From: Acidimicrobiales bacterium
GTDB lineage: Bacteria > Actinomycetota > Acidimicrobiia > Acidimicrobiales > SZUA-35
Length of the DNA stretch: 64,000 nucleotides
NCBI GenBank assembly: GCA_020630065.1
Contig: JAHDCC010000003.1
Coordinates: forward strand, 101,067-165,066
Direction: 5' to 3'
The notes beneath the pieces are model-generated. The model saw only the letters and a list, made by a program, of their open reading frames with translations, was not told the DNA's origin and did no database searches. Below are positions 9,245-10,986 of this stretch, one piece after another; the stretch's first letter is position 1, and each line of letters starts with the position of its first letter. Made by a program: the position numbers and the translations under genes.

Positions 9245-9287
9245 TTGATTTGTGGGGCGAAGTGTCATAAGATGTCACCTAGTGGGG
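9245..9287 (+). promoter_or_regulatory. Predicted mraZ promoter with phased GTGGGG boxes
   Basis: TTGATT (9245-9250), 17 bp, TAAGAT (9268-9273). GTGGGG at 9252, GTGTCA at 9262 and GTGGGG at 9282 lie on one 10-bp helical phase. Confidence 0.6.
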
Positions 9288-9361
9288 GAGTAACCCACTG
9301 AAGCAACTTAGCGGGGGGATTTCTCCGCTGGATGCGTTGTCAGGACCCGCAGTGTTGGGTC
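9281..9361 (+). other. Three consecutive small hairpins in the predicted mraZ 5' leader
   Basis: AGTGGG/CCCACT (9281-9286/9294-9299), AGCGG/CCGCT (9310-9314/9325-9329), GACCC/GGGTC (9344-9348/9357-9361). Confidence 0.4.
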
Positions 9362-9388: not shown

Positions 9389-9814
9389 TTGTTCGTTGGT
9401 CAGTACGAACACTCACTCGACGAAAAAGGTCGAGTTGTACTGCCCGCACCTTTTCGCGCCTTTGTAGCTGAGCGAGGATACGTCACTCAGCTCGATGGAT
9501 GTATCGGGCTCTGGAGCCAGGAAACATTTAGAGAGGTAGCGGAGAAATGGAAAACTGAATCCGAAGCGTCACGAATATCGATGCGAGTGTTCCGGAAACT
9601 CATGAACAGTGTTCGTGAGGTGAAGTTGGACTCAGCGGGACGTGTCACGTTGCCACGAGAGTTACTCGACAACATTGGTTTTGAATCCCAAGTAGTTGTG
9701 AGCGGACTCTTTGACCGAGTCGAAATCTGGCCGTCAGGGACGTACACAGCGGAACAGGAATCAGTTGAAGCAGACGCCGAGCTAGCAGAAGCAGTGGCGC
9801 GATTAGGTCTCTAA
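9389..9814 (+). CDS. mraZ: Transcriptional regulator MraZ (TTG start)
   Basis: MFVGQYEHSLDEKGRVVLPAPFR and VKLDSAGRVTLPRELL: two MraZ/AbrB half domains. Located at the head of the dcw cluster. Confidence 0.97.
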   Translation: MFVGQYEHSLDEKGRVVLPAPFRAFVAERGYVTQLDGCIGLWSQETFREVAEKWKTESEASRISMRVFRKLMNSVREVKLDSAGRVTLPRELLDNIGFESQVVVSGLFDRVEIWPSGTYTAEQESVEADAELAEAVARLGL

Positions 9815-9877
9815 ACATGACCTGATGAAACTAACGAAAACGTGAGAGGAGATAGGCGAAACCAATTCAAATAACCG

Positions 9878-10006
9878 TTCATCGATTACTCTTCGGGTTG
9901 CGAGAGGGTATATGCAATGCCCCACAACTCTGCCCCGCTAACCCGTCTTAGTCCGGCTAGGAGAGAAAACCTACTGGACATGGCAACCCGGGGAGCAATC
10001 GATGAA
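9878..10006 (+). ncRNA. Candidate cis-regulatory structured RNA in the rsmH 5' leader (mraW-RNA-motif-like)
   Basis: Long-range helix TTCATCGATTACTCTTCGGGTTGC (9878-9901) with GCAACCCGGGGAGCAATCGATGAA (9983-10006), one A/C mismatch and two G-U pairs. It encloses hairpin GGGTAT/ATGCCC (9906-9911/9917-9922) and hairpin GTCCGG(C)TAGG/CCTACTGGAC (9951-9961/9970-9979). Confidence 0.75.
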
Positions 10007-10032
10007 TAGTTAGAAGTGGTGGCCAACAGGTT

Positions 10033-10986
10033 ATGTCTAACTCTGGATCCGACACCTCAGAATCTTCAACCTTCGAACATGCGCCAGTACTAGTTGACGC
10101 TCTAGTAGAACTCTCAGCGAGTCTTCCGGCTGGAACATTCCTCGACGGCACAATCGGTGGAGCCGGACATAGTAAAGCTCTCCTGGACGCTCGGAACGAC
10201 ATTACGATCCTCGGCCTCGACCAAGACCCGATGGCGCTTCGAGCCGCCGATAGCTACCTCACACCTCACGACGGAAGATTCGTCTTGCATCGCTGCCGGT
10301 TTGATCAACTTGCAGAAGCTATGGAAGAAACCAAAACCGATCAACTGGTCGGTTTTCTTTTCGACCTCGGGGTAAGTTCACCTCAGCTCGACATCGCAGA
10401 ACGCGGGTTCAGTTTCCGACACGACGGGCCTCTCGATATGAGAATGGACACCGACGCGGTGCTTACCGCCGCAACGGTTGTGAACGAATACTCTCACCAA
10501 GACCTAGCCCGAGTGCTCCACATGTATGGCGATGAGCGGCACAACCAGCGCATTGCCACCGCGATTTTAGCGGCCCGACCGATTCGAACAACGACTGAAC
10601 TAGCGTCGGTCGTGGTTGAAGCGATTCCGGCCGCCGCTCGACGCACCGGTGGTCACCCGGCAAAGAGGTCGTTCCAGGCCCTCCGAATAGAGGTCAACAA
10701 CGAACTCGCAATCTTGGCACCGACCTTAGAGCTAGCACTTGATGCGCTAGTCCCGGGGGGGCGGGGTTTTGTGCTGACCTATCACTCCGGCGAAGACCGA
10801 ATCGTTAAAGACGTATTCCGGCAGCGAACAGCATCGATCGACCCTCCACACCTACCAGTGGAACGGCATCAACCCGACTTCCAACTACTTCGCCCAATCG
10901 CAAGAAAGGCGACCCAAGAGGAAATTGAACGGAATCGAAGAGCGCGAAGCGCACGACTCCGGTCCATAGAACGGGTGGCGGCATGA
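10033..10986 (+). CDS. rsmH: 16S rRNA (cytosine1402-N4)-methyltransferase RsmH/MraW
   Basis: HAPVLVDALVEL, FLDGTIGGAGHSKALL, FLFDLGVSSPQLDIAERGFSFRHDGPLDMRMD, TYHSGEDRIVKDVFR. Confidence 0.97.
   Translation: MSNSGSDTSESSTFEHAPVLVDALVELSASLPAGTFLDGTIGGAGHSKALLDARNDITILGLDQDPMALRAADSYLTPHDGRFVLHRCRFDQLAEAMEETKTDQLVGFLFDLGVSSPQLDIAERGFSFRHDGPLDMRMDTDAVLTAATVVNEYSHQDLARVLHMYGDERHNQRIATAILAARPIRTTTELASVVVEAIPAAARRTGGHPAKRSFQALRIEVNNELAILAPTLELALDALVPGGRGFVLTYHSGEDRIVKDVFRQRTASIDPPHLPVERHQPDFQLLRPIARKATQEEIERNRRARSARLRSIERVAA

What the first reader, a model, noticed from the sequence alone, without database searches (positions are those of the whole stretch)
9878..10006. Large structured RNA between mraZ and rsmH: 24-bp closing helix over two hairpins
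Seen directly: 5' TTCATCGATTACTCTTCGGGTTGC 3' (9878-9901) pairs with 5' GCAACCCGGGGAGCAATCGATGAA 3' (9983-10006), with one A/C mismatch and two G-U pairs. Inside are GGGTAT-ATGCA-ATGCCC and GTCCGG(C)TAGG-AGAGAAAA-CCTACTGGAC. A single-stranded stretch (9923-9950, CACAACTCTGCCCCGCTAACCCGTCTTA) contains ACTCT, which could pair with the GAGAG of the second hairpin loop as a pseudoknot. Established: an mraW RNA motif upstream of mraW/rsmH in Actinobacteria has been described from comparative genomics. Inference: this is a divergent member or a new lineage-specific relative controlling the cell-wall operon. The ligand or mechanism is unknown to me.
Basis: partly seen in the sequence, partly recalled or inferred. 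Interest (0 to 1): 0.82.

Follow-up and report, generated by a model that had tools for sequence, protein, structure and literature searches.

The report
Class-wide leader RNA before rsmH
The hairpin lying between the genes mraZ and rsmH is a real folded RNA, conserved across the bacterial class Acidimicrobiia and absent from Rfam, whose long stem covers or abuts the translation start of rsmH and whose nearly invariant loop resembles the very ribosomal RNA site that the RsmH enzyme modifies, so it may let the enzyme control its own production.

Summary
The helix is real and exactly where reported. It belongs to a conserved cis-acting leader RNA (P1 closing helix, P2 hairpin, optional P3 hairpin). 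The RNA sits between mraZ and rsmH across Acidimicrobiia: 172 of 249 genomes sampled from the order match, as do all 5 class genomes sampled outside it, and no other Actinomycetota genome sampled. Covariation is overwhelming: 375 compensatory cells against 120 expected from shuffles.

It is not the Rfam mraW RNA (RF01746). Neither model finds the other's members and the architectures differ; no Rfam family matches.

The constrained core is the P2 loop ACUCCGCCCGCU. In some genomes the 3' strand of P1 carries the Shine-Dalgarno sequence and start codon of rsmH; in the window's family rsmH starts a fixed ~37 nt further on.

Best explanation: P1 restricts rsmH translation, probably with RsmH as effector, because the loop's best match in 16S rRNA is RsmH's own target, C1402 (ACACCGCCCG, 9 of 10). 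That link is suggestive only (p about 0.004-0.05, post hoc), and the window's own copy is degraded there. RNase III processing is the main rival. New variant of a known kind; function untested.

The parts
9389..9814 (+). mraZ (upstream gene, TTG start)
   Evidence: PF02381, E 7e-23
9844..9851 (+). GAGAGGAG, Shine-Dalgarno-like purine run about 82 nt upstream of the P2 loop core; GAAAGGAG in most of the window's family, not followed by a start codon at a fixed distance
   Evidence: Position conserved in the window's family; predicted unpaired. Role unknown
9874..10009 (+). whole element as matched by covariance model R1
   Evidence: 67.5 bits, E 6.6e-14; note that the window's sequence was one of the 62 used to build R1
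9878..9901 (+). P1 5' strand
   Evidence: Sequence, fold, covariation in 23 of 26 pairs of the helix
9902..9909 (+). P2 5' strand (GAGAGGGU)
   Evidence: Fold; helix supported in relatives
9927..9939 (+). P2 loop core ACUCUGCCCCGCU, a diverged form of the class consensus ACUCCGCCCGCU
   Evidence: Alignment; consensus in 102 of 128 elements
9941..9949 (+). P2 3' strand (ACCC-G-UCUU)
   Evidence: Fold
9951..9979 (+). P3 hairpin GUCCGG(C)UAGG-loop-CCUACUGGAC; optional in the class
   Evidence: Fold, covariation in 8 of 9 pairs; absent in three class genomes
9983..10006 (+). P1 3' strand, containing the SD-like GGGGAG and an AUG
   Evidence: Sequence, fold, covariation
10002..10013 (+). AUG-AAU-AGU-UAG, start codon in the P1 3' strand with a 3-codon frame; in other genomes the equivalent AUG is the rsmH start. 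Probably not functional as a uORF here
10033..10986 (+). rsmH (mraW), 16S rRNA C1402 N4-methyltransferase gene, the likely regulated gene
   Evidence: PF01795, E 5e-99

Best explanation
The element is a cis-regulatory leader RNA of rsmH. Shown here: a conserved structure (P1 over P2 and usually P3) in the mraZ-rsmH gap throughout Acidimicrobiia, with strong covariation; a nearly invariant, mostly single-stranded P2 loop ACUCCGCCCGCU; and a P1 3' strand that carries the rsmH Shine-Dalgarno sequence and start codon in some genomes, or ends about 30 nt before a fixed-position rsmH start in the window's family. Inferred: while P1 is closed it holds down translation initiation of rsmH. Inferred and less certain: the effector is RsmH itself, which would recognise the P2 loop as an imitation of its 16S substrate around C1402 (ACACCGCCCGUC) and so keep its own synthesis low by negative feedback. 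My estimates: about 0.85 that it acts in cis on rsmH expression, about 0.35 that RsmH is the effector. The confidence given is for the statement as a whole.
For: Covariation: 39 of 44 pairs with changes on both sides, 375 compensatory cells against 120.5 +/- 10.6 shuffled and 42-105 slid. Gene association: of 80 loci with the exact 18-base loop in the GTDB collection, 68 have rsmH just downstream on the same strand, 6 are cut-off copies behind mraZ, 6 are chance. All sampled gaps of 100 nt or more carry it; the four without it have gaps of -22 to 28 nt, i.e. no leader. Start site: in 28 of 128 loci the arm start is in frame with rsmH, in 15 it is the only possible start, with mostly strong SD pairing; in the window's family rsmH starts at +100 to +113 from the loop in nearly all loci. 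P2 and P1, but not P3, are kept in the three most reduced class members. 16S: the C1402 site is the best match to the loop core in this genome's 16S rRNA (9/10, 8/9 and 11/14 for three core lengths); shuffled cores match that site as well in 0.4%, 2.0% and 1.3% of cases. Precedent: the G1405 methylase genes sgm and kgmB are reported to be negatively autoregulated at translation (PMC2791848).
Against: The 16S resemblance was noticed after the fact, reaches only 5.5% for the 12-base core, is C-rich, and one loop base (U in CUCC) is invariant where 16S has A. The window's own copy is degraded (CUCUGCCCC) although its 16S is standard. E. coli RsmH and RsmI use the 30S subunit, not free 16S rRNA (PMC5053481). 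P1 is so stable that a default-off state needs an opening step that is not identified. No transcript or binding data exist for these organisms.
Confidence: 0.42

Rival explanations
1. RNase III processing element: the long P1 helix is cut by RNase III, separating mraZ mRNA from rsmH mRNA and, where the start site is in P1, releasing it for translation. The loop would be needed for folding or for another protein.
For: P1 is a nearly continuous helix of more than 20 pairs in almost all genomes, the kind RNase III cuts (general knowledge). RNase III cleavage of mraZ mRNA is reported for C. glutamicum (Maeda 2016, cited in PMC8247434). The start site lies in the 3' strand in some genomes.
Against: RNase III does not need an invariant loop; the strongest sequence conservation is in the P2 loop, not in P1. 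In C. glutamicum the cut is in the mraZ coding region.
Confidence: 0.2
2. A riboswitch: P2/P3 form an aptamer for a metabolite (e.g. a cell-wall precursor or SAM) that stabilises or opens P1 and so controls rsmH and perhaps the downstream cluster.
For: Junction of helices with conserved loops in a 5' leader of a biosynthetic cluster; conserved P3 loop in most members.
Against: P3 is dispensable, the loop-loop contact is not conserved, the element is found in front of one gene only, and there is no terminator. The start-site evidence points to rsmH rather than to the whole cluster.
Confidence: 0.12
3. Indirect feedback through the ribosome: the structured start site is translated well only by ribosomes methylated at C1402, so rsmH senses its own activity without RsmH binding the mRNA.
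For: A 2026 preprint reports that a stem-loop in B. [quoted passage not shown] P1 covers or abuts the rsmH start.
Against: Does not explain the nearly invariant P2 loop. It would be positive feedback. Not tested here.
Confidence: 0.08
4. The region encodes a leader peptide (frame M-E-G-P-Y-S-A-R through P2) and works by ribosome stalling, with the RNA structure secondary.
For: In many genomes outside the window's family an AUG or GUG in P2 opens a similar short reading frame.
Against: The spacing from that AUG to the loop breaks frame in L041, L061, L067, L074 and L076; single-base indels in P2 change the frame downstream; many loci of the window's family have stops in it. A/G alternation at the first base is explained by pairing.
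Confidence: 0.04

Closest known systems
mraW RNA (Rfam RF01746; Weinberg 2010, PMC2864571)
   Same: Cis-regulatory RNA candidate upstream of rsmH/mraW in Actinomycetota; long hairpin with conserved loop; function unknown.
   Different: RF01746 is a single long hairpin with loop ACUUCCCC in Actinomycetales. This RNA has P1 over P2 and P3, loop ACUCCGCCCGCU, and is limited to Acidimicrobiia. Neither model finds the other's members.
Translational autoregulation of sgm and kgmB, G1405 16S rRNA methylase genes (PMC2791848, citing Kojic 1996 and Vajic 2004)
   Same: Genes for methyltransferases acting within a few bases of C1402 whose translation is repressed by their own product. From memory, not checked here because the paper is not held: a CCGCCC box shared by the sgm leader and 16S rRNA was proposed as the basis.
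   Different: Antibiotic-resistance genes of producers, not a conserved housekeeping gene; no class-wide structured leader family is known to me for them; not shown for RsmH.
Ribosomal-protein leader RNAs that imitate the rRNA binding site (autogenous control; general knowledge)
   Same: Leader in front of the gene of a ribosome-acting protein, an rRNA-like site and start-site occlusion would be the same logic.
   Different: Here the protein is an enzyme that modifies assembled 30S subunits; binding has not been shown.

Membership tests
mraW RNA (RF01746) | Match to the curated covariance model at or above 50 bits | tested here: not met
   No match in window, genome or eight relatives, even at relaxed thresholds; positive control C. 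glutamicum and seven other genomes pass
mraW RNA (RF01746) | Single long hairpin with conserved CCUG..ACUUCCCC..CAGG apex | tested here: not met
   P1 over two hairpins, loop ACUCCGCCCGCU
mraW RNA (RF01746) | Location in the leader of rsmH/mraW | tested here: met
Autogenous rRNA-mimic leader (sgm/kgmB- or ribosomal-protein-like) | Leader element resembles the protein's rRNA target more than other rRNA sites | tested here: inconclusive
   C1402 site is the best 16S match, but shuffled cores reach it in 0.4-5.5% depending on core length, and the choice was post hoc
Autogenous rRNA-mimic leader (sgm/kgmB- or ribosomal-protein-like) | The protein binds the leader and represses its own translation | not testable with these tools
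   Needs binding and reporter assays
Autogenous rRNA-mimic leader (sgm/kgmB- or ribosomal-protein-like) | Structure covers the ribosome binding site of the regulated gene | tested here: inconclusive
   Met by sequence and prediction in 15 loci where the arm start is the only possible one; in the window's family the start lies about 30 nt past P1
Small-molecule riboswitch | Ligand-dependent structural change and a recognisable expression platform | not testable with these tools
   No terminator-like site in the gap; ligand binding needs in-line probing

The most novel reading that the evidence does not exclude
A previously undescribed, class-wide leader RNA in which a housekeeping rRNA methyltransferase regulates its own synthesis by recognising an imitation of its decoding-centre target (C1402) in its mRNA, at the head of the division and cell-wall gene cluster.
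Probability: 0.35. Interest if true: 0.82.

Novelty: new variant of a known kind. Interest (0 to 1): 0.62.

Why it matters
It adds a large, well-supported structured RNA family to a class of bacteria known mostly from metagenomes, and gives a concrete, testable hypothesis for how expression of the near-universal methyltransferase RsmH is set: feedback through an rRNA-like loop. If RsmH does bind the loop, it would also offer a small RNA ligand for an enzyme whose substrate recognition is hard to study because it acts on whole 30S subunits, and would invite a re-examination of the unexplained mraW RNA of Actinomycetales.

Tried and rejected
Membership in RF01746 mraW: rejected. Any other Rfam family: none at gathering threshold in the window; sub-threshold hits were animal microRNA models on an unrelated inverted repeat of one relative. 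Repeat or mobile element: only one copy in the genome. Loop-loop pseudoknot between P2 ACUCY and P3 GAG: GAG missing in 9 of 62 while CUC is invariant, P3 absent in three class members. Leader peptide: frame not maintained. uORF from the arm AUG in the window's family (AUG-AAU-AGU-UAG at 10002-10013 here): lengths and stop positions vary without pattern, so probably not functional there. Antisense pairing of the loop with 16S rRNA: 75% of shuffles do as well. Intrinsic terminator in the gap: none. CCGCCC as a shared feature of RF01746 members: not found in their conserved core. A literature search for this RNA, or for RsmH autoregulation, found nothing describing it in the held library, which lacks most subscription journals; the key 1996 sgm paper is not held.

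Full report
Observation. The arms 9878-9901 and 9983-10006 are exactly as described. The 146-nt RNA folds at -63.1 kcal/mol, z = -6.55 against dinucleotide shuffles, with no shuffle as good. It occurs once in the genome, lies between mraZ (PF02381) and rsmH (PF01795), and is followed by a gene in the position of ftsL (no Pfam match) and then ftsI-, murE-, mraY- and murD-like genes.

Not Rfam mraW. No Rfam family matches the window at gathering threshold. RF01746 does not appear in the gap at E<=10, in the whole genome, or in eight relatives at E<=5. The same search recovers RF01746 in other Actinomycetota and in C. glutamicum. Real RF01746 members are single hairpins with loop ACUUCCCC, and the model built here does not recognise them.

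Relatives. I located rsmH in 96 of 100 related genomes and extracted the mraZ-rsmH gap from about 70 of them. Every gap of at least 100 nt carries the same element, with one strongly decayed case (L071, 18.7 bits). The four gaps without it are -22, -12, 25 and 28 nt long, so there is no leader at all. Within the window's own family, L055 has lost it this way and its genus-mate L014 has a decayed copy lacking P3.

Structure. Alignment A1 has 62 sequences. RNAalifold finds P1 with compensatory changes in 19 of 22 pairs. For the full P1/P2/P3 structure 86.9% of cells pair, 39 of 44 pairs have changes on both sides, and compensatory cells number 375 against 120.5 +/- 10.6 in shuffles and 42-105 for slid partners. 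The counts were made on a MAFFT sequence alignment, though the structure was chosen from these sequences' own folds. P3 is missing in three class genomes outside the order, which keep P1 and the P2 loop.

Distribution. Model R1 matches 172 of 249 genomes of the order, across dozens of families. In a sample of 299 genomes of the phylum it matches only the own class: ten order genomes and all five class members outside the order. Of these, 68 have rsmH on the same strand just downstream, 6 are cut-off copies behind mraZ, and 6 are chance matches without the structure. Record titles place most carriers in Acidimicrobiia/Acidimicrobiales. So I infer that the window is from Acidimicrobiales.

Core and start site. 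The P2 loop is ACUCCGCCCGCU in 102 of 128 elements, and CUCCGCCCG is exact in 116. These counts are somewhat inflated because many loci were found through the loop. The 3' strand of P1 contains a G-rich Shine-Dalgarno-like run and an AUG or GUG. In 28 of 128 loci this start is in frame with rsmH, and in 15 it is the only possible start, with predicted SD energies mostly between -5.7 and -10.6 kcal/mol. In the window's family rsmH instead starts at +100 to +113 from the loop in nearly all loci, about 37 nt past the arm AUG. In the window the arm SD-AUG is 7% unpaired and the rsmH start region 17% unpaired by prediction.

16S resemblance. RsmH methylates C1402 of 16S rRNA, which lies inside ACACCGCCCGUCAC. 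Among all sites of this genome's 16S rRNA, and the part of 23S available, the best match to the leader core is the C1402 site: 9/10 for ACUCCGCCCG, 8/9 for CUCCGCCCG, 11/14 for ACUCCGCCCGCUAC, 9/12 for ACUCCGCCCGCU. Shuffled cores reach the same score at that site in 0.4%, 2.0%, 1.3% and 5.5% of cases (first seen). For the consensus of the families outside the window's own (UACUCCGCCCGCUU) the site only ties with one 23S site, and for longer stretches it is not the best. The resemblance is suggestive, was noticed after the fact, and is degraded in the window itself (CUCUGCCCC), so I treat it as a hypothesis. Against it, E. coli RsmH needs the 30S subunit (PMC5053481). For it, the G1405 methylase genes sgm and kgmB are reported to be negatively autoregulated at translation (PMC2791848).

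Mechanism. I consider it about 85% likely that the RNA acts in cis on rsmH expression through P1, and about 35% likely that RsmH is the effector. The main rival is RNase III processing of the long helix, given reported RNase III cleavage of mraZ mRNA in C. glutamicum (Maeda 2016, cited in PMC8247434). A riboswitch is less likely because the element serves one gene, P3 is dispensable and the pseudoknot is not conserved. A 2026 preprint (PMC13317604) suggests a further route, in which C1402-methylated ribosomes handle structured start sites better.

Verdict. It is an undescribed (as far as Rfam and the held papers show), class-wide leader RNA with a testable autoregulation hypothesis.

Noticed in passing
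window 9844-9851; same position in L010-L040: A Shine-Dalgarno-like GAAAGGAG (GAGAGGAG in the window) is conserved about 82 nt upstream of the P2 loop in most of the window's family, without a start codon at a fixed distance after it; perhaps a ribosome standby site.
   Followed up: partly
L014 1375-1474 and L055: A natural decayed variant of the element (no P3, loop CUCCACCCG) in a genus-mate of a genome that has lost the mraZ-rsmH gap entirely: a possible series of loss.
   Followed up: partly
L166, L197, L199; L173, L188, L189: Metagenome assemblies titled Bifidobacterium breve or Acidobacteria carry the 18-base loop; apart from the six listed as chance matches, all held loci have rsmH or mraZ in place. 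The titles are probably wrong or the bins mixed.
   Followed up: no
window 9281-9330: Two G-rich palindromic stretches (AGTGGGGGAGTAACCCACT and GCGGGGGGATTTCTCCGC) upstream of mraZ, possibly binding sites of the MraZ regulator.
   Followed up: no
L041 321-400: A perfect-looking 30-bp inverted repeat in a relative, far from the leader, which matches animal microRNA models below their cut-off on both strands; a chance resemblance.
   Followed up: no
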